From assembly GCA_031213475.1 (NCBI GenBank), contig JARUPZ010000030.1, forward strand, positions 6,999,661 to 7,063,660: a stretch of 64,000 nt of DNA, read 5' to 3'. Shown here piece by piece: positions 39,345 to 58,250 of this stretch (the stretch's first letter is position 1; the number at the start of each line of letters is the position of its first letter). Origin of the DNA: Nereocystis luetkeana. Taxonomy: Eukaryota; Sar; Phaeophyceae; Laminariales; Laminariaceae. Both the position numbers and the translations under genes were made by a program. Below the pieces are notes generated by a model, which did no database searches, was not told the DNA's origin, and saw nothing but the letters and a program-made list of their open reading frames with translations.

Positions 39345-39837
39345 TGTGATGATATAGCCGAGGTAAGGGTAAGGGTAAGGGACGCAGGTGTATCTGGCAG
39401 CTGGGAAGCAGTGCTTCGCTTTTTCTTATATAGATCTTCTTTATTGATGACTAGAGCTGAGGAGGTGCTCTGGTAGAGAAGTGAGAGGTAGGGGGGTGGG
39501 ACTCGACGCTCAGATATACTCGTCCCACCCCACGCTACGAGCTCTCCTAAATTCCTCTTATCTAACGTACTCCTAAATAACTTTCCTAGGGCTACCGATA
39601 GTTCTTCTGCTAATATAAGAACTTCTCACTTTACGATCCTATCTGCGTTAAGGAACATTACTCTTGTCTAACGGCCTATCCGCCTTAGAGAACATTCCTA
39701 AAAGACGGTTACTCTCAACTACCGGAATATCCGCCGGGTTAATCCATTCTTTGGATTATTCTCGTATTCCTCAGGCTACGAAACTGCCGACTATATTATC
39801 TATATCTATAGCCCATGAGCACTCGACTCATATCACA
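39345..39837 (+). repeat. LTR-like dispersed repeat, copy 1 (493 bp)
   Basis: It begins TGTGATGATAT and ends ATATCACA, so it has TG...CA ends and a short terminal inverted repeat. It is about 98% identical to 53,593-54,088. Inside are three TAAGGG units near 39,364-39,381, a TATATA-type box near 39,427, and a GGGGTGGGAC...GTCCCACCCC hairpin at about 39,494-39,535. These features fit a solo LTR, but no target duplication is visible (TTCGAG left, TTAGCC right). Confidence 0.7.
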
Positions 39838-41234
39838 TTAGCCCACCCTGAATAGTCGTATATGCAGACCACAAGATGGTCGAAGGATGATGACAAAGTT
39901 CATCCCAAAAGACCAGGAAAAGGTGGTCGAAGATGCGGCTATTCGAAACAAAAGAAATGAGGCTATAGATCCCCCCACACCTCGTCATAAGACCCAAACA
40001 CTGCGAAGGGGTGTTTACTTAGAACAACCACTTAAAGGTAGAGACCAAAGGAGAGGAAGAAATAACTCAAAGCGGAAGCGAAAGCAGAGAAAGGCAAAGC
40101 GAAAACCGAAGAAAGAAGAAAGAAAACAGGAGACAGAACAAAAGCCGAAGCGAAGGCTGAAGAAGAAAACTAGTACCGAAGTGAAGGCGAAAGAAGGGCG
40201 CACAAAAAGGTGCGAACGGAGGTTGGTCGCCGAACCGGGTTGGCAAACTAGGAAACTCACGAAAGGAGGCAGTGACCGCAATACAAAAAAAAACACATAT
40301 ATATTTGGTAGGAGTAATGCCTTGTCTTGTGGCGGAGGTCCTAAGGTGGTAGACATCACTCAAGAGAAACGGGGCACTGCTAAAGTGCAAAGAGGGCTGC
40401 GTACACTAGGGGCTATTAAAACCGGGAGACGGAGCGAACAACGCGGCGTCTGGGAGGCCTCTTCGTGGTATGAACTATACCAGAAAACGTAGGAAGGTAT
40501 TTTACTCAACAAGAAAAACTCAAGAAGATCCGCAAGAAGATTGGCCTAATGCGTGCAGTTCAAGGTGGTATATAGCGCAGGGCTAAAACACTAGCGTGTG
40601 CAACTCGGCCAACAGGGGCGACATCAAAGATGGTGTCGTTTGCCACAGAGCAGAGGGGCGCGCGGAATACCGAACAAAAGATGAAGAAACCTAAGAAAAA
40701 GAAAACAAACCACGATCGGGACCAGGAAACTAACTGAAAGCAGAACACGAGTCAGGGAAAATCGATCTTGGTAGAACCGCCATGGTTGATAACTCTGCGG
40801 CCTTCCGGGGCGGCAATGCTATCCGGGCCCTACTTGGCAAACATAGAAGAAACACGGGCGAGCTGGAAGCTCGATAAAATCTTAGCTCGATGACCGTCTG
40901 AAACAGGGGTCGGTGGAAACCGACGGAGGCTAGGGTACAGCCCAGGCTACGACACGATTTTACCTCGGCGTAGTATTGCCAATAATTTGCGGTAGGCTAG
41001 TGAAGTACAAACAAATATGAAAATTATGGTATCGCTACGACTCGGTGGCCTGAACGTAAGAAGGCAACACGGAGGTGTAGGCGGTATGAAGAAAACAAAA
41101 GGTAGACGGAAATATATGCACCCAAGAAGCTGGCTGTTGGTACTATTGAAGACTAACCTTGAAGAACTACTTTAATATATTGTTGACTAACCAGAAACAA
41201 GTACCCAGAACTAAAAAAAAATGCTAAACCAAGG
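39838..41234 (+). other. No confident gene; one Lys/Arg-rich ORF at 39,887-40,492
   Basis: A 201-codon plus-strand ORF starting at an ATG is very rich in Lys, Arg, Glu and Gln because the DNA is purine-biased. The opposite strand is also open as Phe/Leu/Ser. With no domain and composition explained by the base bias, I do not call it a gene. The rest, up to the 3' end of retroelement 2, shows nothing recognisable, and I find no LTR here matching the other side of that element. Confidence 0.4.
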
Positions 41235-44200
41235 CTATCCAGGGGGGGGAGTGGAAACCCTGGGGGCTCCGCGGGACACATCAGAGTTCCGCAGCAGCCC
41301 ACGTGCTAGGCTCCCATTCCCATGGCGTTGAAGACACCACGATCCGTACACGGCGTTCCGTGCTGTAGTGTAGCGGGAGGGTTGAAGGTCGATCTTGATC
41401 GGTCCGGGGTCATCCAGGAATCGGATGATGTAGGAGCCGCCCGGTGAAGGTTCCGGTGGAGCTCCCGAAGAGACGTCCGGGGGTGAGCGGTGAGCGATTT
41501 TGCCCAGCCACCAGAGGCCGTCGCGCGCTTTGTACCATATGTGCGCTCCGGGGGGGAGGATGGTGGTGCTGAAGTTGTGGAGCCAGAGGCTGCGGGAGAC
41601 CAGGGCGTAGCCGGGGGCGAGAAATATTTGTCCTTGGGATCGTGCCAGTTCGCGGTGGGCAGCGCCGATGCGCATCTGGCGGTAGAGGCGGTTCGTCTGG
41701 CGCTGTTGTGTCGGCGCTCCTGACCAATAGAGTAGGATGTTGCGCCGGAAGTGTTGAAGGTCCAGCTCGCGTTCCCAAGAGGGACTGAGAAGTCCAGCCC
41801 AGTGGGTCTCGTACAGAACGGCGATGACCCCGCCGCGGCCGCGTACGAGTTGATGGCCGGTGATCTGCTCGACCTCGAGGCGTTCCGGTGGGGGAGTGAC
41901 GTCGTCGACGGTGACGTGGTAAGGTGGGGACTTGGCGGCAGAAGCTGTGAGTACGTATGTAGTGAGGTCCGCGGGCAGATGCTTGGGGATATCGCTGGTG
42001 TCGTCGGGGTTCCGACAAGGTTTGCATCGTTGAACGGAGACGCGTGGCTTGGAGTCCCGTCCCGGAAGGTCGGATGGAAGGTCGAGGAAAAGTAGCTTGT
42101 CGTGAAGAGGGCGGTTGTCGGGGGTGTTCGAGGCGGGCGTCGGTCCAACGGCGAGGACCTTGAAGGGCCCATTCCAGTTAAGGGAAAGCTTCGTCTTGAG
42201 TACAGTTGCGTCGGTGCCCTTTTTGACGCCTTGGCGAATGGTTGAGGTGGAGTTGTAGACCCAAACCCAGCCGCCGACGGTGAAGGGGGGGGATGCTCGG
42301 AGGGCGGCCATGATGGGCGCGTTGCGGCGCTGGAGACGCGAGACGGTGAGTCGGTGTAGTTCGCGGACGAGGGAGTACGCGCGTCGTTGTCGGTCGGTGG
42401 CGAGGTTGATGTAGACCAGATGATCGCGGTCCAAGCTTTGGTGGCCGCCGATGTTGTCGGGTTCAAAGACCGAGAGCGGGAGGCGAGGAAGGCGGCCCAT
42501 GTGGATTTCGTTAGGCGCAAGCCCTGTAGCGGCGTTCACGGAGTTGTTGTAGGCCGACGACACGTGTGGCAGCAGCACGTCCCAGTCGGTCTGCTGTTCG
42601 TTGCCGACCATAGAGAGCATTTGGGCCAACACATGGTTGACGCGCTCGACGCCGCCGTTGGTGCAGGGGTGGTAGGAGCTGGTGTTGACCTTGCGGATAC
42701 CAAGGCGCTCGTAGACGATGTTTGCAAGCTTGGAGGTAAAGTGTAGTCCGTTGTCGGAGAGAAGCGTAACCGGGCACCCCCAGAGAGGGATGTATTCGTT
42801 CAGGAAGATGTCGGCGGTGCCGGCGGCCGTGAACTGCGCCGCTGAAACGGCAAACATATCGGCGCGCCGGCTGAAGCGGTCGGTGAAGAGAAGGATGTGG
42901 ACGTTGCCGCGCGGCGTGAGCGGCAGGGGTCCGAAGTAGTCGACGCTGACGGTGATGCCAGGCCCGTTGGGCAAAGGAAGAGAAAGGATGGGCCAGCGAA
43001 TGGTGTGCCGGGAGGTTTTCCGCGCCTGGCATTGAAGGCAGCGGCGGATCCACCAGCGGGCGGAAGCGTCCATGCCAATCCACCAAAAGAAACGTGCCAG
43101 CATGCGGACCGTTCGGGTGACTCCTAGGTGTAGAGAGGTGGTGGCGTGGCAGGTGTTCAGCACCCAGGGGCGCATTAACATTGGCACGTAGATGCGTGGG
43201 GTAAGGGGGGCGGGTGGTGGTAGGCTGTTCCCGGGTGGGGGTGGGGGTGGTCGTTGGACCAGGAGGGTGGTTTCGTCGTCCGTACGGTGCAGCTTGCATT
43301 TGGAGGCAAGGGTGAGGACGTCCGGAAGTTGTGGGCGCCGGGCCGAGGGGATGAAATCCAGGAGGTCGTTCGGCGGGGGGGCAGGGGAGTCCAACGACAG
43401 GAAGCGGATGGTGGCGCAGCACAGGGGCTCTGCTTGTTGTTCTCGCGCCCAGTCTTTGAAGGTGTAGTGCTCGACGCGGGCGAGGAGGTAGGGGTCGTCA
43501 TCGGGTTCGACGATGGGCTCCGGGAGGGGCAGCGACGGTGGTGCTGGTGCCGGCGGAGAAGGCGTTGTTGGGGGGGTTGGGGTTGGGTTTGCGGGCGCAA
43601 ACGGGTCGGGCGGCGCGGGAGCTGTGGCTGAAGGCGCCGTAGGAGGAGGGGGTCTTGGCTGGACCCCGGCCGGGGGCGTGGGCGCACTGTGGGTGGGTGT
43701 AGATCGTCTGCGTACGACGGGTTGTGGTCGACGGCCGAAGCGATAGTCGGCTGTGGGTCGAGGGGTTCCCGCGGCGGCGGCGATGCGATGGCGGGTCCGA
43801 GAAGATATCAGGCCTGAGACGGCTGGTTCCGTGCCGCCAGTGGTGGACGGCGGAGAGACGACGGACGGCCTGGAAGCCGAGCCTGGAGGAGCTCCGCTGT
43901 TCACGGCGGCGTTCTCGGGGCCAACAAGCAGTCCAGCGGTGGAGTCAGTGGTCGCAATAGGCCCGACGAAGGTGTCGGGTGCGGGTGAAAGGGTGGGGTG
44001 CTCCATACGTGGTCCCAGTAGGCGGAAGTCGCGGAAATCGTCGGTGGTGAAGGGAAGCGGCTGGATGGTTGGGATGGGCCTTGAAGGGGGGGATACGAGC
44101 CCACCCAAGCCGATACCCGGGGCGGGAGGGTCGTTCGGCGCGAAGCCGCAGGGACGGATGAGGTAGATGCCGACGGTGTCCGGGCCGGTAAGGCGGTTGC

Positions 44201-47200
44201 GTCCGGTGCGGTCGGCGTCGGTGGCGGGTTGGGGGAGCCGGGAGAGGAAGTCGGCGTTGCCGTTGGCCGTGCCCCTCCGGTATTCCAGCGTGTAGGTGTA
44301 CGTCGAGAGGAACTCGAGCCAGCGCCGGACGCGGGCGTTGTGTTCTCCGACCTTGGCGATGTTCTCGAGCGCCTTGTGGTCCGAGTAGATCTGGAAGCGG
44401 GTGGACCATAAATGTCCACGGAGGCGTTTGATCGCCCACACGATGCTCCCGGCCTCGAGGTCGAGGGGTGTCCACGAACGTTCGGAGTCCAGGGTGGCAC
44501 GGCTGATGAAAAGGATGGGTCGGACTGAGCCGTCGGGTTGTTCTTGCTCAAGGGTCGCGCCGAAGCCGTCGATGCTAGCGTCGCAGTAGAGGCGGAAGGG
44601 GCGGGAGTTGTCGGCGACGGCGTCCCAGTCGGGGTAGACGAGGATAGGCGGTTCGGCAAGTTCTTGGAAGATGGCGCGGACGGTGGTTTTCATGGCGGGG
44701 GTGAAGTCGAACGTGGCGCCTTGCTTGAGTAAAGCGTTGATGGGGCGCAGACGTCGGGAGAGATTCGGCAGGAACTTGCCGTAGTAGTTGATGCCCCCAA
44801 GGAGCGAGCGCACTTGCTTCTTGTCGGCCGGCATGGGCATTCTGGTGAGGGCGGCGACCTTGTCGGAGTTGGGGCTGTAACCGCCGGCGGAGATGGTGTG
44901 TCCCAGGAAATCGGCGGTGGTGGCACCAAGTTTGGCCTTGGCCGGGGAAAGTTTGAGGTGGTGCTTCCGGAGGCGTCCGAAGAGAGCTCTGATGTTGGCA
45001 ACGTGGTCGTTGGGGTTGGGGTCGAAGACGATGATGTCGTCGAGATACGCGGCGACGCGTTCCAGGCCTTTGATGACCTCGTTGATGACCTTAACGAACC
45101 AGCCGGGGGAGGCGCTGCTGCCTTGTGGCATAACAAGCCACTCAAATAACCGGTTCGGTGTGCAGAACGCTGTCAAGGGGATGGTGTCCTCGTCGATGGT
45201 GATTTGGTGGAACGAGGAGACCAGGTCGAAGAGGGAAAAGATGCGACCTTTACCCAAGGAGTCGAGGACTTCGTCGACGCGGGGGATGGGGAGTTGTCCG
45301 AGGGAGCTGATGGCGTTGAGCTTCTTGTAGTTGATTGTGATGCGAACACCTCCGTCTTTTTTGGGGATGGCGACCATAGGGCTGGAGTATGGCGACGTGG
45401 AATGCTGGATCAGGCCGGCAGCCAGGTACTGGTCCAATACGGCGTCGGCCTTTTCGGCGAGGATGGGGTTGATCCTGTAGGGGCGGGAAGTGACCGGTGC
45501 GCTGTCCGGAGGTACCGTGATCTTGAACGGCATTAGCGAGCACGAGCCGAAGTCGGTCTTCGACGTGGAGAAGACGTCCTGGAATTCGCAGAGGACGTCG
45601 CCCAAGTTGTTGATCACCGATGGGGTCCATCCAGAACCGTGAAGGTCGAAGTTGACGTCGCGTAGGTGCAACGGCAGGCGTTCCCAGAGGTCGAGGAAGC
45701 TTTTGCGCTGGTCGGTGTCGAGGCGTGCAAGGAGCTGTGGGCACGGGGCTTTTAGTGCGGTAGAGGGGTCGGCTGTTGATGGACTCTGGTCGGCCACCGA
45801 GATGTTGTTGTGGAGGGCATGTACGTCCGGAAATGGAGGGGGGAGCGGCGGGTCCAAGGAGGGATGCCCAAGGGTGGCGAGCGGTACCTGTACCAGTGGG
45901 GAGCAGGAGGTTCCGAGGAGGTCACCCGGCTCGAGTTCGGTAGATCCAGATAGGGGGACCGTTTGGTACCCGTCGGAGACGAAAATCGCCGTGTCGGAAA
46001 GGGGGTTCTCGCGGGGGAGCATGTTCACCATGTAATTCCCGGCCAATGCTGGAGCGCCTGACTGGCGCACCAGGTTGACCTTGGCGAGCTGTGGGGTAGA
46101 GGAAAGCGAAATAGCTTTGTTGCCGGCGAATCGGAGGTGGTAGACGTCGTCAGTGGAACGATCGTCGGGAATGAATGCTGAGGCTCCGTTGGGGTCGTGG
46201 TGACTTAAAGAGAGCTCACCACGGGTTTGCCGGGAAGGTTGGTGGGGGAGGGCGGGCTGTTGCCGGAGCGTGGTATACGAGCGGTGCTCGAAGCGCATCC
46301 AGCTGTCTCGTCCCAGGAGGATGGGGTGCTGCATGGTTCCAGCAGGAACTACGCAGGCCCATACTGCTAGGGCAGCGGTGGGGGTCTGGAGGCGCATAAA
46401 CTGGATGCTTAAGCGGATAGAGACGGAGGTGGAGAGTGGGGCCGAGGTGCCGAAGCCTCCCCATGAACGGGGGGAACTGTGCCGTTCGCAGGCGTCGGTG
46501 GCTGACTGGGAGGCCTTCAGTTGTTCCATCGCGGTTGCGGTGATAAACGACTGGGGCGAGCCGGTATCGAGCAGTGCCACGAGTTCGTGGCGGGTAATGG
46601 CGTCGGGGCCGCTGTGCACGAGTACCTTCGTCGTGAACGACGCGTCGTCGACGGTGATGATGCCGCCTGTAAGGCATGGTCCGTGTTCCGGTATCGGCGG
46701 CCGACGGGTAGGAAGGTGGCTGTGGGCTGCGGTGTGGATGGTGGACACTTGGGCGAAGTGGCTGATGGGGTAGGCGTCGGGTGTAGACGGCGGTAGAAGC
46801 AGCCCAAGTGGGGAGTTAGGCGGTTGCCGTGGAGGGGTCGGGCTTGTCTCGTGGATGCCGTCGGCGGTGGGGAAGACCCGGGTTGAGTCGGTGGAGGCGG
46901 GTGTTTGCTCTGGGTCGTTGGGACTGGTACCAGTAGGAAGTTGGGGGAGGCGATCGGCGTCGAGGCTTTCTCGGACGTCCATCAGTACCCGGCCCAGCAG
47001 ATTCCGACCACGCCAACGCGTCGGAATGCAGGCGTCCGGATGATCGGCCTTGAGGCCTATGCCCCAGACGAGGTCGTGTGGGCTGGCCTCGGCAATGTGT
47101 TTGTCGTCCGTTGCCGCCAGCTCTCGCCGTAGCTCCGAGTGTTGGCGGAACTTGGAGAAGTTGAGGTTGAGGACGATGTTGTAGCGGTGTCGCTCCCAAA

Positions 47201-47402
47201 CCAGTTCGTCGAAGCCGAAAACGGTGCGTCCAAGTGCTTTTTGGTCGGCCGGGTCGCGGGTCGCTTTGATGCGGCGCTCAGTTGTGGTGTCCCCGAAGAG
47301 CGCAGCCTTCTGCGCCATCATCCTCTGCTCGGCGCAGTTGTATGTGACGCCATCGTGTTCGATGTCGCACAGGTACCACTGCGAAAAGACGGAAGAGGAG
47401 TC
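41235..47402 (-). CDS. Retroelement 2: NADAR-protease-RT-RNase H-integrase-chromodomain polyprotein
   Basis: An uninterrupted frame of about 2,055 codons (first in-frame ATG at 47,321) that opens directly after a UGA at 47,403-47,405. Numbered from that ATG: NADAR to about residue 120; Pro-rich linker; protease LLDTGSPQSF (252-255) with HPILLGRDSW; RT about 600-800 (VAIPKKDGGVRI, FSLFDLVSSFHQI, YLDDIIVF at about 759); RNase H about 905-1,035 (LYCDASIDGFGA, LEAGSIVWAI, YSDHKALE, NADFLSRLP). A long Pro-rich linker follows. Integrase has H-x-H and C-x2-C (about 1,392-1,430) and a DDE triad (SVDYFG about 1,459, LSDNGLHF about 1,522, GGVERVNH about 1,559). A chromodomain lies at about 1,810-1,870 (LEVEQITGHQLVRGRGG, ETHWAG, SWERELDL), and a second SH3-like reader at about 1,925-1,990 (IWYKARDGLWWLGKI, YIIRFLDDPGPIKI). 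All catalytic residues are present. It ends with UAG. Confidence 0.93.
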   Translation of the reverse strand, partial: DSSSVFSQWYLCDIEHDGVTYNCAEQRMMAQKAALFGDTTTERRIKATRDPADQKALGRTVFGFDELVWERHRYNIVLNLNFSKFRQHSELRRELAATDDKHIAEASPHDLVWGIGLKADHPDACIPTRWRGRNLLGRVLMDVRESLDADRLPQLPTGTSPNDPEQTPASTDSTRVFPTADGIHETSPTPPRQPPNSPLGLLLPPSTPDAYPISHFAQVSTIHTAAHSHLPTRRPPIPEHGPCLTGGIITVDDASFTTKVLVHSGPDAITRHELVALLDTGSPQSFITATAMEQLKASQSATDACERHSSPRSWGGFGTSAPLSTSVSIRLSIQFMRLQTPTAALAVWACVVPAGTMQHPILLGRDSWMRFEHRSYTTLRQQPALPHQPSRQTRGELSLSHHDPNGASAFIPDDRSTDDVYHLRFAGNKAISLSSTPQLAKVNLVRQSGAPALAGNYMVNMLPRENPLSDTAIFVSDGYQTVPLSGSTELEPGDLLGTSCSPLVQVPLATLGHPSLDPPLPPPFPDVHALHNNISVADQSPSTADPSTALKAPCPQLLARLDTDQRKSFLDLWERLPLHLRDVNFDLHGSGWTPSVINNLGDVLCEFQDVFSTSKTDFGSCSLMPFKITVPPDSAPVTSRPYRINPILAEKADAVLDQYLAAGLIQHSTSPYSSPMVAIPKKDGGVRITINYKKLNAISSLGQLPIPRVDEVLDSLGKGRIFSLFDLVSSFHQITIDEDTIPLTAFCTPNRLFEWLVMPQGSSASPGWFVKVINEVIKGLERVAAYLDDIIVFDPNPNDHVANIRALFGRLRKHHLKLSPAKAKLGATTADFLGHTISAGGYSPNSDKVAALTRMPMPADKKQVRSLLGGINYYGKFLPNLSRRLRPINALLKQGATFDFTPAMKTTVRAIFQELAEPPILVYPDWDAVADNSRPFRLYCDASIDGFGATLEQEQPDGSVRPILFISRATLDSERSWTPLDLEAGSIVWAIKRLRGHLWSTRFQIYSDHKALENIAKVGEHNARVRRWLEFLSTYTYTLEYRRGTANGNADFLSRLPQPATDADRTGRNRLTGPDTVGIYLIRPCGFAPNDPPAPGIGLGGLVSPPSRPIPTIQPLPFTTDDFRDFRLLGPRMEHPTLSPAPDTFVGPIATTDSTAGLLVGPENAAVNSGAPPGSASRPSVVSPPSTTGGTEPAVSGLISSRTRHRIAAAAGTPRPTADYRFGRRPQPVVRRRSTPTHSAPTPPAGVQPRPPPPTAPSATAPAPPDPFAPANPTPTPPTTPSPPAPAPPSLPLPEPIVEPDDDPYLLARVEHYTFKDWAREQQAEPLCCATIRFLSLDSPAPPPNDLLDFIPSARRPQLPDVLTLASKCKLHRTDDETTLLVQRPPPPPPGNSLPPPAPLTPRIYVPMLMRPWVLNTCHATTSLHLGVTRTVRMLARFFWWIGMDASARWWIRRCLQCQARKTSRHTIRWPILSLPLPNGPGITVSVDYFGPLPLTPRGNVHILLFTDRFSRRADMFAVSAAQFTAAGTADIFLNEYIPLWGCPVTLLSDNGLHFTSKLANIVYERLGIRKVNTSSYHPCTNGGVERVNHVLAQMLSMVGNEQQTDWDVLLPHVSSAYNNSVNAATGLAPNEIHMGRLPRLPLSVFEPDNIGGHQSLDRDHLVYINLATDRQRRAYSLVRELHRLTVSRLQRRNAPIMAALRASPPFTVGGWVWVYNSTSTIRQGVKKGTDATVLKTKLSLNWNGPFKVLAVGPTPASNTPDNRPLHDKLLFLDLPSDLPGRDSKPRVSVQRCKPCRNPDDTSDIPKHLPADLTTYVLTASAAKSPPYHVTVDDVTPPPERLEVEQITGHQLVRGRGGVIAVLYETHWAGLLSPSWERELDLQHFRRNILLYWSGAPTQQRQTNRLYRQMRIGAAHRELARSQGQIFLAPGYALVSRSLWLHNFSTTILPPGAHIWYKARDGLWWLGKIAHRSPPDVSSGAPPEPSPGGSYIIRFLDDPGPIKIDLQPSRYTTARNAVYGSWCLQRHGNGSLARGLLRNSDVSRGAPRVSTPPPG

Positions 47403-47423
47403 TCAGAACAAGTGAAAGGATGA
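46962..47423 (-). other. NADAR (YbiA-like) domain fused to Gypsy Pol
   Basis: About 150 residues with the full NADAR signature in order: FSQWY, a DGVTYNCAEQRMMAQKAA block, ALGRTVFGFDELVW, KFRQHSELRRELAATD, IAEASPHDLVWGIGL and RGRNLLGRVLMDVR. NADAR proteins bind ADP-ribose-type ligands; members act as N-glycosidases in riboflavin side-product clearance or as hydrolases removing ADP-ribose from guanine in DNA. The Glu and Lys of the EQ...AQK block and the WGIG loop are kept, so activity is plausible. The first few residues (SSFHLF) lie upstream of an in-frame UGA at 47,403-47,405. That UGA falls six residues before SQWY, the position of a common conserved Trp (FFW) in eukaryotic members. Confidence 0.85.
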
Positions 47424-48524
47424 GGGGGCCTCTGCGGTGGTGTGAGCTGTTGATGGCGTGTTGGTTGTTGGGGGTGGGGGGCGACGATAATTGTTCCTAT
47501 CGCCACCTGGCGTCGACGGGGGTAGAGTCAGCCACGACCTAGCGGTGCTGACCGGAACCCTCGTGTTCGCGGGGGAATTGCTCGGCAACGCCGAGGTACC
47601 GGGGGGGTCCACGCCGGGGCTTATACGCCGGGCGAGATGACCCTGAAAGGTGTTGACGATAATTTTTCTATCGCCACCTGGCGTCGACGGGGGTAGAGTC
47701 AGCCACGATCTAGCGGTGCTGATCAGAACCCTCGTGTTCGCGGGGGAATTGCTCGGCAAAGCCGAGGTACCGGGGGGGTCCACGCCGGGGCTTATACGCC
47801 GGGCGAGACGACCCTGAAGGGCCCTGTCGTCCAACTTTTGGAGGACAGGGGGATACTCGCTAGGAGATACCACACCTGGGGCCCGTGTCCACGCGTTGCA
47901 CAAAGCAGGCGAGGAGGACGGGGCAGGGGGCTCAGGGCATGTCCTGGTCGACGTTGGTCGCGAGTCTTCCGTTTTTAATACGGGACTGCCCCTCGAGCTC
48001 AGGGGCAGCGGTGGTGTCAACACCGTGGCAGCGGGTGGAAGCCCGTCGTTCGCGGGTCCAACGCTGTCACAAGAAAGGCGCGCATGCTGGAACAAGCGCG
48101 TATGGAGCGGCCAATTAGAGGCAGGCTCAGGGGGCGATGGCCCGGCCGACGAAACGGTAGTTTCGTGTGAACCGGAACCGCTGGTAGCCGTAATCGTCGA
48201 GACGTTTCCCAGGGTAGCAATGTCTGGGGTCTCGGCAATGGTCGGCAAGTAGCGTTGCTCACCGCCGGAAGACGTCGAGTGGAGCATCCTGGTGAGGCTC
48301 GGCGTCTTGGCCTCCTCCCGCCCACACCTCAAGGCAATCACTTGAGCAAGAGGATCAGTGCTTGAGCAAGTGGCTGGGAAATGGGCTGGGGTAGGGGGGG
48401 GGCATGCGGGGGCAGGGGTCGGGGAGGCGTGGTGCACGTGATTTACGCGTGCGTCCTGAGAGCCTCGGGTGGTCGCAGTAGATGCTGTTGATGGAGATGC
48501 GGCAGGTGCTCCATCATCGGCTTG
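47403..48524 (-). CDS. Linker segment of retroelement 2 between zinc knuckle and NADAR
   Basis: About 373 open codons in the same frame as the zinc-knuckle ORF and Pol, bounded by UGA at 48,525-48,527 and UGA at 47,403-47,405. It has no good ATG at its start. It is rich in Pro, Ser, Thr and Ala, with no globular domain except its last residues, which are the beginning of NADAR. It contains an in-frame 171 bp tandem duplication. Its frame continuity with Pol implies one ancestral Gag-NADAR-Pol frame. Confidence 0.65.
   Translation of the reverse strand, partial: QADDGAPAASPSTASTATTRGSQDARVNHVHHASPTPAPACPPPTPAHFPATCSSTDPLAQVIALRCGREEAKTPSLTRMLHSTSSGGEQRYLPTIAETPDIATLGNVSTITATSGSGSHETTVSSAGPSPPEPASNWPLHTRLFQHARLSCDSVGPANDGLPPAATVLTPPLPLSSRGSPVLKTEDSRPTSTRTCPEPPAPSSSPALCNAWTRAPGVVSPSEYPPVLQKLDDRALQGRLARRISPGVDPPGTSALPSNSPANTRVLISTARSWLTLPPSTPGGDRKIIVNTFQGHLARRISPGVDPPGTSALPSNSPANTRVPVSTARSWLTLPPSTPGGDRNNYRRPPPPTTNTPSTAHTTAEAPSSFHLF
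47482..47823 (-). repeat. In-frame 171 bp tandem duplication
   Basis: Two direct copies with period 171 bp (57 codons) and a few substitutions. The word CGCCACCTGGCGTCGACGGG recurs at 47,501 and 47,672. The encoded unit includes LARRISPGVDPPGTSALPS and STARSWLTLPPSTPGGDR. Because 171 is a multiple of three, the reading frame is kept. Confidence 0.9.
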
Positions 48525-49115
48525 TCAGTTGGTGCGGAAGGTTCCCGGCTGCCGTTGGTTCGGGAGGTTGGTCGAGTTGTTGCTGCCCATCCGCATGTTT
48601 GCGGGGGCGGCTGGTGCGGACGTGTTGGTCGCAGGGGTATGAACCGTCAACGCGGAAGACGAGGGGGCAGGCTCGATGCGTTGTTGTCGGAACTGTTGCC
48701 CTGGCGAGTGTCGGTTGCCGTTGTCGTAGTTCCGGCCGTTGCTATGGCGCCAGTTGTTGGAGCGCCCGTTGTCGCCGCGGTAGTTGCGGGAGTGGTTATA
48801 GTTGGAGTGGCTGTTGTTGGAGTTTCCGCTACGGTTGGTGTTGTTGCCTCGACGGTTGTTGTCGTAGCGGTTGGAACTCCGCTCCAGGTTGCGCTCGTAT
48901 TGCCCCCGGCGGTAAGAGAGCATCCTCTGTTGCCACTGGCGGTAGGCCTGACCGTCGTCGTTTAGCTGTCCGAGTGCCGGGTTTAAGATGCCGGACGTGG
49001 TGAGGAGGCTCTTGGAGCAGGTCTTCTGGCTATGGTCCGTGCCATTGCAGTTGAGGCAAAGGTCACCGTGAGCGCGTAGGGCTTGGGCGTGGGACACCGC
49101 GACGTTCCGCCTCCG
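48525..49115 (-). CDS. Gag C-terminal part of retroelement 2, CCHC zinc knuckle
   Basis: The frame opens near 49,115 and ends in UGA at 48,525-48,527. It encodes CLNCNGTDHSQKTC (49,017-49,058), a C-x2-C-x4-H-x4-C retroviral-type zinc knuckle that binds genomic RNA. This is followed by a very Asn/Arg/Ser/Gly/Tyr-rich tail (about 48,700-48,920) that looks disordered and RNA-binding. It is in the same frame as the linker and Pol, but one frame away from the capsid-like segment upstream, so a frame change is needed near 49,100. Confidence 0.75.
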   Translation of the reverse strand, partial: RRRNVAVSHAQALRAHGDLCLNCNGTDHSQKTCSKSLLTTSGILNPALGQLNDDGQAYRQWQQRMLSYRRGQYERNLERSSNRYDNNRRGNNTNRSGNSNNSHSNYNHSRNYRGDNGRSNNWRHSNGRNYDNGNRHSPGQQFRQQRIEPAPSSSALTVHTPATNTSAPAAPANMRMGSNNSTNLPNQRQPGTFRTN

Positions 49116-49809
49116 TCATGGGCTCCGTAGAGGCTCTCGTCACCAGGCTGAGCGCTCGTGTGGAGGGGGGCGCTGCCGTCGTGGGAGGTGTTGTCGAGGT
49201 GAGAAGGGGCGGTGTCGCCGGCGATGGCGTATCCGTTGTGGGGCGGGTGGTTGGGGGTGTCGGAGGGGTGGGTCGAGACTCGGTCGGGTTCCACACGTAG
49301 CCGCGGCCGGCGTTGGAGTGGAAATACCTTAGCTCGAGAAAAAGGGTGTGGGCGGCCCCGATGAACTCGGACGAGGCACCCTCGGTGGCGGCGCGGGCCA
49401 GAACGAAGGTGATCGACGGGTCGCAGTCGGGTGTGAACAGTCGCCAGACGCGGCGTGCCGCTATAGAGACATCTGAGGCTATTGGGTCGCGTGTACTCTG
49501 CATCCAGCGGAGCTTGGCGTCCAGAAAGACCCAGTCATTTTACTCAAAGCCGAACGTCTGCGGTTGCCGGTGCCCAGTGGGTTTGGGGGCTGGCAAGGAT
49601 TGGGCCGGTAGTGGTGCCTGGGACATTGAGGTCCCAGCTTGTTTCTGGGGGCGCTGGGAGGTGGTGGTCCTAGACATCGCGGCGGACGTAAAGGGTGGTC
49701 CAGGGTGCGGAGCCGACGGCTGCGGTTGGGCCGTGGTGGCCGTGGTCGCAGCTGCAGTCTCGTAAGTGGGGTCGAAGGGGTAGGAGAGGGCGGTAACACG
49801 AGTAGGAGG
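49101..49809 (-). pseudogene. Gag capsid-like segment of retroelement 2, frame-shifted and with an internal UAA
   Basis: This frame is offset from the segments on both sides. It encodes a Pro/Thr-rich linker, then after a UAA (49,540-49,542) a capsid-like stretch: NDWVFLDAKLRWMQS, SDVSIAARRVWRLF and ELRYFHSNAGRGYVW. Upstream continuity with the frame at 49,801-50,168 needs a -1 type step near 49,800-49,813. Downstream continuity with the zinc-knuckle frame needs the opposite step near 49,100. Compensating single-base indels, sequence errors or recoding would all explain it. Confidence 0.6.
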
Positions 49810-50168
49810 TCAGCGCTCTCTTTTGCAAGAAGGAGGAGCTGCTCGTTGTGGGGTTTGAGGGCCGCGCGGCGCTCACGGAGAGCCGTGGGATCGCCTTGGT
49901 AGTGCCCCGAATTGAGAGCAGGGGTGGAAGTTTCCTGTGCGGAGACTTCCAGTTTGATGGTAGGCCCGGCACTGGTCGTGCCTGCTCCCAGTGGAGAAGA
50001 TCCCGGTGTGGTGGGGTGTAGAGCGAGGTCACTCAGAATGGTATCGAAGCCGGGGGTGTCGTCGTCCGTGGCGCGAAAGGACCTTGCGGCATACCTCGCC
50101 TCGCGGGGGTTGGTGGTGTCGGGGGAAGGGGCGCCGGGAATGTCGGTGGAGGGAGCTTTCTCGGCCAT
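49801..50168 (-). CDS. Gag N-terminal part of retroelement 2
   Basis: From ATG at 50,168. About 120 residues look protein-like (TILSDLALHPTTPG, then LRERRAALKPHNEQLLLLAK), with a helix-forming segment at the end (NEQLLLLAKESADLLL). After about 49,801 this frame turns into Pro/Arg-rich sequence and the meaningful frame moves, as described for the capsid-like segment. The ATG is preceded in element sense by a non-coding leader. Confidence 0.55.
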
Positions 50169-51938
50169 GTTTAGGCGGGTAGAACGCTTGTACTGGGGCG
50201 GGAAAAGGTTTGGTGGAAGATGGAGAGGGCGGGTGGATCCAGGCTTGGATCAGTATAGGCGGCTACAATACCAACAAACCGATCTAGAGGAGAGAAAGGA
50301 GTGACGGTAAGGACGTACGATAGGGGGTGGGAAGGGGGGGGGGGGTGTGCCACGATTTTTTTTAGTGCCCGTCACAGGATATTTTTATAGTTGAGGACGT
50401 CTAGCTAGTTTCAGGCGCCTCGCGTGTGATTGACGGTAGTCGCGCCCGAGTCACTCAAGTGATATCAGTGGAACTGAATTGAACAGAACTCCGTCTGAAA
50501 TGTCCAATGTTCGTAATGATAACGGGGCGTGACGATTACTGGGCGTGGGCAGTGCAAGACCTTTCGTTGGGATACAATTAGAGTACCCGTAAAGGAAACG
50601 TGTAGGTCGAGTCGGGGGAAAAATTGCAGCATGCCGGCACTATTTGGTAGCTGCACAGCATATCGGGCGATTCATTACTTGAACGGTGGGCAGTTTTTCG
50701 TTCCGTGGTAGAAACAGACAGCAACCGATACGTTTCGGGGGTCGCGAGGCCCGATACGTTGTGAGATACTTAGGGTATCGTAGAGGTGGCACAAGTGGGA
50801 ACAAAAATAAAAATAAGAAATAAGAAATAGACCCCGGTACGTAAAAACATGGAAAAGAGTATCAATCGGCTCCTTTGGGGGAGTCGAAGACGCTAATCCG
50901 CCGCGAAGGATGTTGTGTATTATTGTGTTAGTTTGGCCAGCATTTAGTTCATCACTCTCGGAAATGGTCACTGTCCGGGCCACAGTTACTATGCTCCATA
51001 TTCGAGCAGCTTGCAGCTGCTGTTTTTGTGATGAGCTGGACAAACATGGGAGAAACAGATGTTTACTAGTTTGTGTAGCCTTTGTGGTGTTACGGTTCTA
51101 GGCAGCCTGTATCCTGCTTTATTTGTAAAAGCTGGTGGGGGTGGGGCGCGTTGGAAAATAACACTAGTTACAAACTTGAACAGTGTCTACCCTGCTTTGA
51201 TTTAAGGTGGGAGCAAAAAAGAAAAGAAAAAAAAAGGAAGGCACACGTCCAAAACAAAAAAGAAAGGGAAAACAAACACGACCAAACTAATATTCGGGCC
51301 AGATCAGGTAGCATACATTCTGTTTTGACGTGCTACAGCTGGGGGGGGGTAGACGTATACAGCAGTAGACAAAGTTGCGCGCCACAAAGCCTCGTTTCGT
51401 CGGTAACGCTGAGGAACGTGCACGTAAGAGGCTGTAGCCGGACATATTTGTGCAGCATATATATACCTTATTTCTGGCTTAAAACTGGCAAATTTAAATG
51501 CGCCTAGGCAGCTGACGGACAAGGTTCGGCAATATAAAGCCGCTGTAAGTCGTTAATGCCGGAAAACAAACGTGCACGTAAAGAGCAGTAGAAAAAAAAA
51601 TCTAAAAATAACAGACATCGTTTGTATCCTATAGGCCGTGGGGGCGGGGCATAAATAGCAGAAATCCGATTAATTTCCGCAGCATGCGTCCTGTATTTAT
51701 AGTAGAGCAGCAGGAAAGTAGTGCATCATAGAGCCTGTTCTGCACGGTAGAAGCAGCGTGTGGACGGGCAATCTGAAGAGGGGTGCAGAAATATAAGCTG
51801 GTCCCAACGAGCAACGTTTAAAATTCGCCTGCAGATATATTCCTAAAGAGCTACGTGCAACCATATAAGAATTGTTTACAGGTATACCTGGTATTCCCAG
51901 AGAGCTACCCGTACGTGTGTGTTCTTCGCATTGTAGCC
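50169..51938. other. No recognisable gene (upstream flank of retroelement 2)
   Basis: This includes a G-rich run near 50,330-50,345 and A/purine-rich tracts near 51,210-51,290. I searched it by eye for an LTR, primer-binding site or promoter of retroelement 2 and found none I could support. ORFs are short and motif-free. Confidence 0.4.
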
Positions 51939-52050
51939 GGTCGCCCCGGTGGTTCAAGTGGTTAACCTCGAATTCTACTTGTTTGAGTCCTGGGTTCGAG
52001 CCCTAGGAGGGTCGGACTTTGACTTTATTTGCAAAAATAAAAAAAGGGAT
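51939..52050 (+). repeat. tRNA-like SINE head
   Basis: The sequence has an A-box-like TGGTTCAAGTGG and a B-box-like GGTTCGAGCCC at tRNA spacing. The T-arm pairs well, but only about half of the acceptor stem pairs. It is followed by an A-rich tail. This fits a tRNA-derived SINE or decayed tRNA better than a functional tRNA gene. Confidence 0.4.
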
Positions 52051-52259
52051 TCAATTGTTGAGAGCGCCTTGCAGCGTGGGTAGGCACAATTCGATGCGAG
52101 TCGACGAGGGAAGAAAAGGCTGAAATCTTCTCGCGATAAAAATGAAGGCACGTACCGTAGCGGGAAGGGGGGAGAAGAGCCTGCTATGTGACCCCGGATC
52201 TGAGTTACGAGTTGGAAGGAGAGAGAGAAGAAGATGTGCGAAGATAATAAATGGGATGG

Positions 52260-52294
<35 letters not shown>

Positions 52295-53592
52295 CGTGCA
52301 ACCAGGTAAGGTTCGCCTACGTACGAGTATAAATATATGCATTCCTATACGGTGGATGTGCTACACCATCACATCAAGAAAGGGGCACCGACCGTGCATC
52401 GTTTGTCTACCTAAATATATCGTGAGGAAGGAAGGGGGGGTTGACGGGAGATTTCGTCACTAAAATAGTGTTACGTACCCCTATTGGTACCTCGCTCGTA
52501 CACCAGACTTTGTAGGCTACTATGTACGTGTTGAAATCCTGTAACCAAGGCATTCAAATAAAACACCAGGTACATTTATGGCTATTCTCGCTGTGGGGGG
52601 GTCGCCAGTAAGTTTAATTCATACGTATACTATCGCTCGTATCAGGTACCAGGTACCAGGTATGGTCGTTCAAATAACTCGCAGGCGAATATCCCACGCA
52701 ATGGATACGAATGGATACAATTCGCAATTATAGCCGAGCCGTTCGTAGGCTGCTCACATATGCATATAATAGAAATGGCGTATTTAGTCACACAACCGCT
52801 GTTCCTAAAAAAACAAATTCCACGTATCAGTATACTGCTGCGGGTGTCCTACCAGTACTACAGCAGCTTCTTTGTAGTCGTGGTAAGGGTCAAATCCCAT
52901 ACAACGCTTGTCTATACAGAAAGGTGCAGATGAAATGGCGGGGGGGGAGAATGTGAGCAGTTCCACCTAAATTTCACGAAGGGCGGGCATACATCGAGGC
53001 GGAGGGGGTCATTGTTGTAAAAAATACTCTCGTTGTTATGCGCGATGAGCACGATGTCATTTGGGGGGGGTCTCCAGGTGCATTCAACCACATGGTGTCA
53101 CGTATCGTGGAGGTGATCGATCTCGTCATTCCACGGCGGAGACGGGGTACAGGGCGCGGAAAAACATACCTCATCACACTGCCGAGAGCAGCAGTAGTAC
53201 TTATATGACAAGTACCTACTAAGAAACAGCAGAGAGAACTTGTACGTGCTTGTACATGTGCCTGATAAGGGGGGAAGAATGCGTCTACTCACCTATACTA
53301 AGAGGGGAGCAACGTCTACTGTCGCCACTAGGCAGCTTGTCACAGTCGTCGGCACTTAAAACGCACTCAGGAACGCAGGTTCGAAAAGAAAACAAACGAA
53401 GAAAGAAAATAGACAGCGAGGAAAACGAAAGAGAACACGAAACAAGGAACGAAAAGAAACAAAAATAAAAAGTTGACTTCAAAACCAGTTGCCTCCCGGG
53501 TAGGGATGGCTCACATGATTGTGAGAAGATCTAGAAGAAGTGCTGCAGTCCTCAGCTTGGCCAGAAGGTTCGTCGAATGCGAAGACGTCAGA
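52051..53592. other. No recognisable gene; poly-A and CCAGGTA repeats
   Basis: It holds an uninterrupted A30 run at 52,260-52,289 and a short tandem of CAGGTAC words at 52,644-52,661. A purine-rich tract at 53,380-53,470 gives Lys/Glu artefact ORFs. No domain or RNA gene was recognised. Confidence 0.45.
52260..52289 (+). repeat. Poly-A run (30 bases)
   Basis: An uninterrupted homopolymer, possibly the tail of a retroposed sequence. No matching target duplication was identified. Confidence 0.85.
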
Positions 53593-54088
53593 TGTGATGA
53601 TATGGCCGAGGTAAGGGTAAGGGTAAGGGACGCAGGTGTATCTGGCAGCTGGGAAGCAGTGCTTCGCTTCTTCTTATATAGATCTTCTTTATTGATGACT
53701 AGAGCTGAGGAGGTGCTCTGGTAGAGGAGTGAGAGGTAGGGGGGTGGGACTCGACGCTCAGATATACTCGTCCCACCCCACGCTACGAGCTCTCCTAAAT
53801 TCCACTTATCTAACGTACTCCTAAATAACTCTCCTAGGGCTACCGATAGTTCTTCTGCTAATAATATAAGAACTTCTCACTTTACGATCCTATCTGCGTT
53901 AAGGAACATTACTCTTGTCTAACGGCCTATCCGCCTTAGAGAACATTCCTAAAAGACGGTTACTCTCAACTACCGGAATATCCGCCGGGTTAATCCATTC
54001 TTTGGAATTTTCTCGTATTCCTCAGGCTACGAAACTGCCGACTATATTATCTATATCTATAGCCCATGAGCACTCGACTCATATCACA
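53593..54088 (+). repeat. LTR-like dispersed repeat, copy 2 (496 bp)
   Basis: It matches 39,345-39,837 at about 98%, with one 3 bp length difference (TAATAATATAAG here). It has the same TGTGATGATAT start, ATATCACA end, TAAGGG triplet (about 53,612-53,629) and GGGGTGGGAC hairpin. Flanks differ from copy 1, so these ends define the mobile unit. No target duplication is evident. Confidence 0.7.
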
Positions 54089-55195: not shown

Positions 55196-55800
55196 CTCCT
55201 GCTTCTCGACCGCTGTGAGCGAACCCTAAAATTCTGAATTTATCTTCAACTTTTTCTGGGACTCCGGACGCATTCACTTCCCTGCCTTCGTGACTGCTTT
55301 TTCGACCGCTTTTTGCGACGGTCGCGCGAGCCGGCGTCCGACGGGTGTTCTCAAGTGCGCGCGTCTCGAAGTGTCGCGCCACCGACGAGCGCGCCGACCC
55401 CGAACTTGAGGGGTTTTTGCTGGTAAAAGGAGACACGGCCGTTCTATTTTCTGTGCTCCTGGAAATTTGTTTAGGTGTTGTTGCTCCGCGGAGAGCTTCT
55501 AATGACAGGCTTCATCTTACAGTAGAGTCTTTTTGCTCTCCGAGGATCTCTCGGTCTTGCTGATGCTACCGCTTTCTACCGACTGCCTTGCTTTGCGGGC
55601 CGCCGCCATCGGCCTGTTCGAACCCCTCGGTCCTGCCTTTCTCGGTGACTGCCTTCCCGTGCCCCTCTCGTTTTGCCTGACGACTACACGCGCCTTCTCG
55701 GGGTATCGCACCGTTCTTGGTACCAGATCGTTGCATATCCCGGTGATTTTGCTTTGTTGGTGTTTTTGTCAATAATTGTTTTGATAACTCGGCACATCTT
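55196..55800 (+). repeat. Dispersed repeat of about 600 bp, copy 1
   Basis: It shares long blocks in the same order with 57,642-58,250: CTGGGACTCCGGACGC, CTTTTTCGACC, GGTCGCGCGAGCCGG, CGCCACCGACGAGCGCG, GGTGTTGTTGCTCCGCGGAG, TGCTACCGCTTTCTACCGAC and GCCTGTTCGAACCCCTCGGT. On the minus strand both copies keep an Arg/Ser-rich frame, but the frame is broken differently in each, so no protein is called. Confidence 0.7.
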
Positions 55801-57143: not shown

Positions 57144-57641
57144 CTCAAACAGTACTTGGCAACTGGGCAGAAAAAGGGCAGCAAATACTACTATCGTAAA
57201 CATCATCAAAGTAATCTGAGTTCTGAGATTATAAGGGAGACCTCTCAGAACTGAGCTTATTTCTGCCCCCGCCAGCAGCAACTGGGCTCCATATTATCGA
57301 TGATTTCCTGGCCCATAATTAGAGACGGTTCTGATCTTAGGGCTTCAGAGTAGATGGCTGAAAACGACAGCACTGATAACGTCCCAAACAAATGCTTTAA
57401 AAGTTGGTCTATAATTCGAGTGAGACAGATACAAGAACTGATAACTGACACTCGGCATTGCCTTTTCCCTGCCCCACTTGGCATTGCCCTGATCCCGTTC
57501 GCAACAAGATCGAATGGTGTACTTATGTCAACTTGCTTCAACATAATCACACCACTTTTGGCACTGAGGTATATTTTCCTATCCGGAGCATGGGTGCCGG
57601 CAGGCACCCATGCGGAGCCCTTGTAGTTATACATAAAATCC
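57144..57641. other. No recognisable gene
   Basis: Short overlapping ORFs on both strands (the longest about 180 codons, minus strand, running into the adjacent repeat) show no domain. Confidence 0.35.
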
Positions 57642-58250
57642 TTCTCGGCCGCTGTGAGCGAACCTTCAAATTCCGATTTTATCTTCAACTTTATCTGGGA
57701 CTCCGGACGCCTTGGCTTCCCTGTCTTCGTGCTTGCTTTTTCGACCACTTTCCTCGGCGGTCGCGCGAGCCGGACTCCGACAGGTGTTCTCCCGTGCACG
57801 CGTCTCGGAATCTCGCGCCACCGACGAGCGCGGCGACCCCGAACTTGAGGGATATTTGGTGGAAAAAGGAGACACGGACGTTATATGTTCTGTGCTCCTG
57901 GAAAATTGTTTAGGTGTTGTTGCTCCGCGGAGAGCTTTTCTTGTGACAGGCTTCATTTTTCAGTCGTAGCTTTTTACTCTCCGAGGTTCGATCTCTCCGC
58001 CTTGCTGATGCTACCGCTTTCTACCGACTGCCTTGCTTTGCGGGCCGCCGACATCGGCCTGTTCGAACCCCTCGGTCCAGCCTTTCTCGGTGGCTGCATT
58101 CCCTTGTCCCTGTCTCTTCGCCGGACGACTACACGCGCCTTCTCGGCGTATCGCGCCGTTCTTGGTACCAGATCGTTGCATATCCAGGTGATTTTGCTGT
58201 GTTGGTTTTTTTTTCAGTAAAAATGTGATAACTCGGCACATCTTCTCTTT
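57642..58250 (+). repeat. Dispersed repeat of about 600 bp, copy 2
   Basis: It is the closest relative of 55,196-55,800, by eye well above 80% identical, and ends with the shared GTGATAACTCGGCACATCTTCT words. A (G/T)-rich loop near 58,205 differs between copies. Confidence 0.7.

What the first reader, a model, noticed from the sequence alone, without database searches (positions are those of the whole stretch)
46962..47423. A NADAR domain captured by a Ty3/Gypsy retrotransposon, between Gag and protease
Seen: a full set of NADAR signature blocks (FSQWY, EQRMMAQKAALFGD, EASPHDLVWGIGL, RGRNLLGRVLMDVR) lies in one uninterrupted frame with a retropepsin, RT, RNase H, integrase and chromodomain. 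Known: NADAR proteins act on ADP-ribose-linked or riboflavin-pathway substrates, and some remove ADP-ribose from guanine in DNA. Inference: the element may use it to strip a host ADP-ribose mark from its cDNA or RNA, blunt an NAD/ADP-ribose-based defence, or process NAD-derived signals during integration. I am not aware of a well-described Gypsy lineage with this layout, but cannot search.
Basis: partly seen in the sequence, partly recalled or inferred. Interest (0 to 1): 0.92.

Follow-up and report, generated by a model that had tools for sequence, protein, structure and literature searches.

The report
NADAR enzyme inside a jumping gene
A family of copy-and-paste jumping genes in this probably brown-algal genome carries an ADP-ribose-removing (NADAR) enzyme domain that has been kept for a long time; the arrangement was reported for Ectocarpus in 2025, but what the domain does there is still untested.

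Summary
A NADAR domain (Pfam E = 1.2e-46; AlphaFold model closest to oomycete NADAR 8BAU) lies in one 2,055-codon frame with RT, RNase H, integrase and weakly matching retropepsin and chromodomain of a minus-strand Ty3/Gypsy element. It is not a one-off: 150 of 150 scored candidates (778 in all) match NADAR in the host genome, and the copies I read fall into five Gypsy subfamilies. NADAR and RT/RNase H trees give the same order for these, so one capture followed by vertical inheritance fits best; a single clade is not rejected (p-AU 0.41) but weakly supported. Between subfamilies omega is well below 1, and the active-site Glu/Lys/Glu is kept in 52, 52 and 49 of 52 distinct copies, while the rest of the domain evolves faster than RT. 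The window copy is damaged: an in-frame TAG sits where NADAR begins. The layout is already in print (Gypsy-12_Ec32, Genome Biol 2025). New here: the selection and tree evidence, a conserved Gag-TGA-Pol junction, and an apparently different family of NADAR plus RT-like proteins from unnamed sources. Most likely role (inferred): a guanine-ADP-ribose hydrolase carried with RT that cleans template RNA, primer or cDNA.

The parts
53593..54088 (-). 5' LTR of the element (496 bp, TG...CA)
   Evidence: 98% identical to the other LTR: 486 of 496 alignment columns, 7 mismatches and one 3-base gap. No matching 5-base target duplication in the flanks, by eye.
50169..53592 (-). Long 5' leader between LTR and gag
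   Evidence: No frame of 200 codons or more listed there. By eye, one short frame of this leader (50675-51043) recurs in copies L020 and L022, so it belongs to the element. No TGG-type primer binding site directly after the LTR, by eye.
48528..50168 (-). gag region with CCHC zinc knuckle (CLNCNGTDHSQKTC, about 49017-49058); open stretches lie in two frames in this copy
   Evidence: ORF list; no Pfam match for the gag frames except one sub-threshold DUF hit. Knuckle recognised by eye.
48525..48527 (-). TGA at the end of Gag, in frame with pol; similar junction (N-stop-CAR-G[CT]N-GAY-GG) in other copies
   Evidence: A pattern allowing any stop matched 13 of 20 long copies, the stop being TGA in all 13, in frame with NADAR in 8 of 13; it did not match the window, where one codon differs. 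The window's TGA was located. The 7 long copies without a match were not examined further.
47406..48524 (-). Low-complexity linker between Gag stop and NADAR, with a 157-base direct duplication (47494-47650 / 47665-47821, 96%)
   Evidence: no Pfam match in 47406-48437.
47403..47405 (-). In-frame TAG just before the NADAR core: this copy's pol frame is broken here
   Evidence: Of the 20 window-type (A) rows printed, the window and L021 have it and 18 do not.
46962..47396 (-). NADAR domain (YbiA type): E25, K32, E105 of the 150-residue frame 46953-47402 match E43, K50, E125 of 8BAU
   Evidence: Pfam, PDB sequence match, AlphaFold pLDDT 90.3, Foldseek 8BAU TMq 0.85, residue map.
46308..46586 (-). 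Retropepsin-like protease with DTGS
   Evidence: Asp_protease_2 E 0.016 and Peptidase_A2B E 0.12, both sub-threshold.
44892..45368 (-). Reverse transcriptase
   Evidence: RVT_1 E 3.9e-28.
44298..44612 (-). RNase H
   Evidence: RT_RNaseH E 8.5e-29.
42666..43187 (-). Integrase (H2C2 zinc finger 43014-43187, core 42666-42965)
   Evidence: Integrase_H2C2 E 8.6e-15; rve E 9.9e-6, below its cut-off.
41736..41876 (-). Chromodomain-like segment
   Evidence: Chromo E 0.18, sub-threshold.
39345..39837 (-). 3' LTR (493 bp)

Best explanation
A YbiA-type NADAR domain entered the pol frame of a chromodomain-like Gypsy lineage before subfamilies A-E split, and was then inherited vertically with RT. Shown here: the domain, its place, its many copies, active-site conservation, purifying selection between subfamilies, a tree of the same shape as RT. 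Inferred: Gag ends at a TGA and Pol is reached by reading through it, so NADAR is made in small amounts with protease, RT and integrase and packaged in particles. There it hydrolyses ADP-ribose from guanine bases of the element's RNA, its primer or the nascent cDNA, which would otherwise block reverse transcription or mark the DNA. Capture and retention: about 0.9. The specific guanine de-ADP-ribosylation role: about 0.4.
For: Domain and fold. Copies: 150 of 150 scored (778 candidates) match NADAR, 9 of them in 2,427-2,428-codon open frames; of 40 loci first fetched from that list, NADAR in 40, protease in 39, RT in 20 of 20 long ones; of 106 window-type RNase H copies (at least 94% identical), 91 have a scored NADAR upstream and 10 of the other 15 keep damaged NADAR sequence. 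Same topology: NADAR ((A,E),D),(B,C); RT+RNase H ((A,E),D),(B,C). Selection: A-E omega NADAR 0.217, protease 0.111, RT 0.040; NADAR 2dlnL against omega = 1 is 36.7. Active site: E25 52/52, K32 52/52, E105 49/52 distinct copies (58/58, 58/58, 55/58 rows, six copies having been read twice); 9 of 11 positions around the ligand invariant across one row of each of five subfamilies against 45 of 144 overall, P = 5e-4. Activity by homology: the 8BAU protein hydrolyses guanine-linked ADP-ribose (PMC11543638, passages); all NADARs tested in PMC11833690 reversed guanosine-ADPr RNA and were inactive on phosphate ends (passages).
Against: No assay. No DarT match in the host genome; only one PARP exon, two macro exons and three Tpt1 exons found, so the writer of guanine-ADPr is unknown. 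NADAR is less constrained than RT and protease. In subfamily A the shared changes are not poorer in replacements than the singletons (shared N7/S3, single N18/S18), against expectation. Within-subfamily dN/dS is biased because copies were picked by NADAR score; for C (3 pairs) it is 0.70. Some multiplied copies carry broken NADAR: four share an 11-base deletion, and the window and L021 share a TAG; these also break the pol frame. One of three database relatives (P0002) lacks the K32 and E25 letters in the alignment. Readthrough at TGA is untested and 5 of 13 junctions are out of frame with NADAR. NADAR monophyly is weakly supported (20/0 with the X family left out).
Confidence: 0.45

Rival explanations
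1. Counter-defence against soluble signals: the domain degrades NAD/ADP-ribose-derived small molecules or host protein ADP-ribosylation rather than acting on nucleic acids.
For: Proposed for viral NADARs: PMC9503650 argues phage NADARs mainly target small ADPr derivatives and eukaryotic RNA-virus ones macromolecular ADPr (passages). NADAR evolves faster than RT and protease (A-E omega 0.217 against 0.040 and 0.111), as a conflict domain might.
Against: The domain sits in Pol, downstream of the Gag stop, which predicts low abundance in particles rather than free abundant enzyme (inference). No host signalling enzyme was identified, but few were searched for.
Confidence: 0.25
2. RNA-end or NAD-cap processing of the genomic RNA (compare the idea of RNA processing in PMC12477816).
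For: RNA processing is proposed by the Ectocarpus authors; Tpt1-like exons are present in the host genome.
Against: [quoted passage not shown] I saw no test of NAD caps in those passages.
Confidence: 0.1
3. Structural or nucleic-acid-binding use of the fold without catalysis.
For: Much of the domain is free to vary; NADAR identity of A to the other subfamilies is 46-57% where RT is 71-87%.
Against: Catalytic and ligand-side residues are among the positions that do not vary.
Confidence: 0.1
4. Passenger: a hitchhiking insertion decaying neutrally.
For: Many copies, the window's included, have stops or frameshifts in or beside NADAR.
Against: Omega is well below 1 between subfamilies whose synonymous sites are near or past saturation, with open frames kept.
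Confidence: 0.04

Closest known systems
Gypsy-12_Ec32 and its lineage in Ectocarpus (PMC12477816)
   Different: The sequences themselves were not available for comparison here. This genome is larger (465 Mb against 200 Mb) and holds at least five subfamilies with diverged NADARs. Selection and the Gag-Pol stop are not discussed in the parts I read.
Tx1 LINE ORF1 NADAR of Crassostrea gigas (PMC12477816)
   Same: Apparent NADAR carried by a retrotransposon.
   Different: LINE ORF1, animal host; reported there as divergent.
Phytophthora nicotianae NADAR (PDB 8BAU) and E. coli YbiA (2B3W)
   Same: Fold and active site (TMq 0.85 and 0.79).
   Different: Solved chains of 189 and 168 residues, not part of a Pol polyprotein; 32% and 29% identity.
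NADARs inside RNA-virus polyproteins
   Same: Embedded in a polymerase polyprotein (PMC9503650, passages); structural matches include Ingleside virus RNA polymerase.
   Different: RNA-dependent RNA polymerase, no integration.
DarT1-NADAR toxin-antitoxin
   Same: Hydrolase superfamily acting on guanine-ADPr.
   Different: BC4488 type with catalytic Asp; here Glu (YbiA type), and no DarT match in the genome.

Membership tests
NADAR superfamily, YbiA type | Pfam PF08719 match above cut-off | tested here: met
   159.4 bits against 35.1
NADAR superfamily, YbiA type | NADAR fold | tested here: met
   AlphaFold pLDDT 90.3; 8BAU TMq 0.85, 2B3W 0.79
NADAR superfamily, YbiA type | Glu (not Asp or His) at the position of 8BAU E125, plus E43 and K50 equivalents | tested here: met
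   E105, E25, K32 in the window; 49, 52 and 52 of 52 distinct copies
NADAR superfamily, YbiA type | Hydrolysis of guanine-linked ADP-ribose | not testable with these tools
   Needs an enzyme assay
Ty3/Gypsy LTR retrotransposon | PR-RT-RNase H-IN order in one pol frame | tested here: met
   (PR sub-threshold by Pfam)
Ty3/Gypsy LTR retrotransposon | LTRs with TG...CA ends | tested here: met
   493/496 bp, 98% identical
Ty3/Gypsy LTR retrotransposon | Target-site duplication | tested here: not met
   Flanks do not match at this copy, by eye; other copies not tested; recombination between copies would explain it. I still call it Gypsy because pol order and LTRs define the group and this mark is lost in recombined copies (recalled)
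Ty3/Gypsy LTR retrotransposon | tRNA primer binding site after the 5' LTR | tested here: inconclusive
   No TGG-type site by eye; no tRNA comparison made
Gypsy-12_Ec32 lineage | NADAR in N-terminal Pol plus chromodomain | tested here: inconclusive
   NADAR clear; chromodomain only E 0.18, below cut-off
Gypsy-12_Ec32 lineage | RT phylogenetic placement with the Ectocarpus elements | not testable with these tools
DarT1-associated NADAR (BC4488) | Asp in place of Glu, and a DarT partner | tested here: not met
   Glu; DarT 0 matches in the genome

The most novel reading that the evidence does not exclude
Guanine ADP-ribosylation of nucleic acids is a real restriction on retroelements in some eukaryotes that lack DarT, and unrelated retroelements (Gypsy here, Tx1 LINEs in oyster, and a family of unnamed origin with an RT-RNase H-like C-terminus: P0041, P0043, P0044, P0048) have each recruited NADAR against it.
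Probability: 0.2. Interest if true: 0.85.

Novelty: new member of a known kind. Interest (0 to 1): 0.55.

Why it matters
If the domain removes ADP-ribose from nucleic acids, it points to a base modification in eukaryotes that matters to retrotransposons and whose writer is unknown. The kept active site, the many open copies and an apparently different NADAR plus RT-like protein family make that directly testable. The present evidence turns a brief passage in an Ectocarpus paper into a long-lived, selected trait of a Gypsy lineage.

Tried and rejected
One-off insertion: rejected, five subfamilies carry it. Repeated swapping of NADAR between subfamilies: considered because NADAR identity (about 55%) is far below RT (about 85%) for A against E; not favoured because NADAR and RT trees have the same shape and protease is also fast. 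Separate origin of the A and B/C NADARs: suggested by the first tree (at 90/77), not needed after adding D and E (single clade p-AU 0.41). Separate origin of the X-family NADAR (P0041, P0043, P0044, P0048): its four rows are one side of a branch (100/99), but union with the Gypsy NADARs is not rejected (p-AU 0.25; with B and C alone 0.15), so independence rests mainly on the different RT-like part. X family as DIRS: not shown. RVT_1 E 3.4e-4 and RT_RNaseH E 7e-4 are below cut-offs, one profile alignment to Gypsy RT-RNase H gives E 1.4e-4 at probability 52, the AlphaFold model was poor (pLDDT 42), a PDB profile search gave no RT: two NADARs and one chance-level hit, and Phage_integrase had no match in this genome (79 candidates scored). 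Two viral-contig scans gave no relatives. Copies without NADAR: 5 of 15 unmatched window-type copies have none in the 1.1 kb read, as do 9 of 24 less similar copies; some are explained by other spacing or by deletions (L097, L098, L099), most were not resolved. L097 and L099 have a deletion running from NADAR into protease.
Full report
What is there. The element is on the minus strand, 14.7 kb from 39345 to 54088, with 493- and 496-bp LTRs that differ at 7 positions and one 3-base gap. Reading from the 5' LTR at the right: a leader of about 3.4 kb, gag with a CCHC knuckle (by eye), a TGA at 48525-48527, a low-complexity linker of about 373 codons containing a 157-base duplication, then NADAR, protease, RT, RNase H, integrase and a chromodomain-like segment, ending at 41238. 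Open stretches of gag lie in two frames in this copy. An in-frame TAG at 47403-47405 cuts the pol frame at the start of the NADAR domain; the open part downstream is 2,055 codons. Copy L021 has the same TAG; four more of the 150 rows have open frames of 2,054-2,055 codons and may share it, but were not read.

The domain. Pfam NADAR E = 1.2e-46. The two solved relatives found by sequence are the Phytophthora NADAR 8BAU and E. coli YbiA. The AlphaFold model (pLDDT 90.3) matches only these two in the PDB at E <= 0.001 (TMq 0.85 and 0.79), and NADARs of phages, giant viruses and RNA viruses in the viral library (38 matches at E <= 0.001). By the residue map, 8BAU E43, K50 and E125 correspond to E25, K32 and E105 here. 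PMC11543638 (passages only) describes these as active-site residues and says that Glu at E125 was used to define the YbiA subfamily.

Copies in the genome. The NADAR search gave 778 candidates; the 150 scored all matched above the cut-off. Nine of them lie in open frames of 2,427-2,428 codons. I fetched 40 loci from that list: NADAR in 40, protease in 39, RT in 20 of the 20 long ones. A search by RNase H gave 1,357 candidates, 150 scored. Of its top 106 rows (at least 94% identity; one lower-scoring partial hit at 98% was not counted), 91 have a scored NADAR 1.9-6.7 kb upstream on the same strand, 87 of them at 2.6-2.8 kb. I read the expected site in the other 15: 10 keep damaged NADAR sequence, 5 show none. 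Four of the damaged ones share an 11-base deletion. Twenty-four less similar RNase H copies (78-90% identity; two already in the NADAR list) were read too (L065-L088): 15 gave a NADAR match over part or all of its length, two of these only 22 and 29 residues at the edge of the stretch, and 9 gave none in the 1.1 kb read. Of three such E-like copies then read over 2.8 kb, two keep a NADAR fragment and one has neither NADAR nor protease (L097, L099, L098).

Five subfamilies, named here from the copies I read. A (the window's), B, C, D and E. Identity to A (full-length hits): E has RT 85-86%, protease 68-71%, NADAR 54-57%; D has RT 84-87%, protease 63-67%, NADAR 51-52%; B (two copies) has RT 75-77%, protease 53-54%, NADAR 51-52%; C has RT 71% (one full copy), protease 53-54%, NADAR 46-47%. 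NADAR is thus the fastest of these domains in the closer comparisons; against B it equals protease. The NADAR tree gives (A with database relatives P0001-P0003, then E, then D at 86/92, not starred) and (B, C) starred. RT plus RNase H gives (A, E), then D, and (B, C), all starred, with one C row. Holding all Gypsy NADARs as one clade costs 1.4 log units, p-AU 0.41. With the X family (below) left out the clade appears by itself, but with support 20/0. The simplest reading is one capture before these subfamilies split, then vertical inheritance. The outgroup rows are database NADARs, of which only P0023 bears an organism name (Babylonia areolata). PMC12477816 reports that blastp of its Gypsy NADARs found almost only bacterial hits outside Ectocarpus and suggests horizontal transfer.

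Selection. Pairwise codon models on one copy per subfamily: A against E omega NADAR 0.217, protease 0.111, RT 0.040; omega = 1 is rejected for NADAR (2dlnL 36.7). All comparisons of the four domains lie below 1, though dS is saturated in most and several fits ran to the bound. Among A copies pooled dN/dS is 0.40 for NADAR, 0.41 RT, 0.39 RNase H, 0.74 protease; among B copies 0.47, 0.67, 0.51 and 0.62; among the three C copies NADAR 0.70 and protease 3.8 on very few changes. These within-family values are biased, since copies were chosen by NADAR score, and one sub-result runs the wrong way (A: shared changes N7/S3, singletons N18/S18). Active site: one search used 58 rows with at least 85% coverage (shorter or broken ones were dropped), but six copies had been fetched twice, so 52 distinct copies: E25 and K32 are kept in 52, E105 in 49, the three exceptions all in B. 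Of the three database relatives E25 and K32 are kept in two, E105 in three. Across one row of each subfamily 45 of 144 positions are invariant; of 11 positions named around the ligand in PMC11543638, 9 are (hypergeometric P 5e-4).

Gag-Pol junction. A DNA pattern for stop-CAR-G[CT]N-GAY-GG, allowing any stop, is present in 13 of 20 long copies, in both A and B, and the stop is TGA in all 13. It misses the window, where the fourth codon after the stop differs, but the window has the TGA. In 8 of 13, and in the window, TGA is in frame with NADAR; in the other 5 it is not, presumably through indels in the linker. This suggests, but does not show, readthrough expression of Pol, which would put NADAR with RT and integrase in particles.

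Host enzymes. DarT: none. PARP: one exon. Macro: two exons on C13. Tpt1: three exons on C13. RibD_C: two weak matches. These searches match exon by exon and may miss genes. No writer of guanine-ADPr is identified; pierisin-like enzymes were not searched for.

A second family (X). Searching the NADAR region in longer proteins found P0041 (1 of 433 candidates), and its C-terminal part found P0043, P0044 and P0048, also with NADAR, plus P0047 without and three shorter ones (8 hits including P0041 itself among the 7,991 best candidates scored). Their C-terminal 500 residues look like RT-RNase H (RVT_1 E 3.4e-4 in P0048, RT_RNaseH E 7e-4 in P0046, both below cut-offs; collinear profile match to the window's RT-RNase H E 1.4e-4, probability 52). 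E25, K32 and E105 equivalents are kept in 4 of 4. Source organisms and element type are unknown; they may come from metagenomes. I found no mention in print: in an open-access library, (NADAR or YbiA with transposon and RT terms) returned only PMC12477816; one search listed 15 papers with the phrase NADAR domain, of which only that one is on transposons by title; one search listed 20 of 104 papers, which I did not open apart from that one.

Prior art. PMC12477816 (passages, section 5 part 1; [quoted passage not shown] The window also holds a second Gypsy with a sub-threshold Tudor match. Both together make a brown alga the likely host; this is inference, and the species is unknown.

Function. 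PMC11833690 (passages) reports that NADARs are the only hydrolase family found able to reverse guanosine RNA ADP-ribosylation and that they are inactive on phosphate ends. PMC11125620 (first of six parts) reports that NADARs of different subfamilies share activity on guanosine-ADPr and describes a YbiA-subfamily antitoxin. Together with the kept active site this makes guanine-ADPr hydrolysis the most likely chemistry; its substrate in the element's life cycle is inference.

Verdict. A real, selected domain in a Gypsy lineage; a new member of a known kind; function open.

Noticed in passing
26528-35122 (minus strand): A second Gypsy-like element: RVT_1 and RNase H in 28712-31918, integrase and a sub-threshold Tudor match (PTM_DIR17_Tudor E 6e-4) in 26528-28702, resembling the Tudor Gypsy-10_Ec32 described in PMC12477816.
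   Followed up: partly
28712-29713 (minus strand): The tail of that element's RT-RNase H frame looks by eye like a degenerate cytosine methyltransferase (LCCGGGGGL..., ECHPNLL); Pfam lists nothing at E up to 10.
   Followed up: partly
P0041, P0043, P0044, P0048 (database proteins, unnamed hosts): NADAR fused upstream of an RT-RNase H-like region in a family apparently different from Gypsy; P0043 also has a sub-threshold OTU protease match.
   Followed up: partly
G000:C1:8752865-8753638 and three other places: Four weak matches (26-29% identity) in the host genome to the RT-like part of that family; element type not determined.
   Followed up: no
L097, L099: E-like copies with a deletion running from inside NADAR into protease, apparently a deletion derivative.
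   Followed up: partly
L050, L052, L055, L060: Four window-type copies share an 11-base deletion at about NADAR codon 40, so frame-broken copies have multiplied.
   Followed up: partly
39887-40492 (plus strand): 201-codon basic ORF antisense to the element between pol and the 3' LTR.
   Followed up: no
55202-55498 and 57641-57937: Direct repeat of 297 bases, 88% identical.
   Followed up: no
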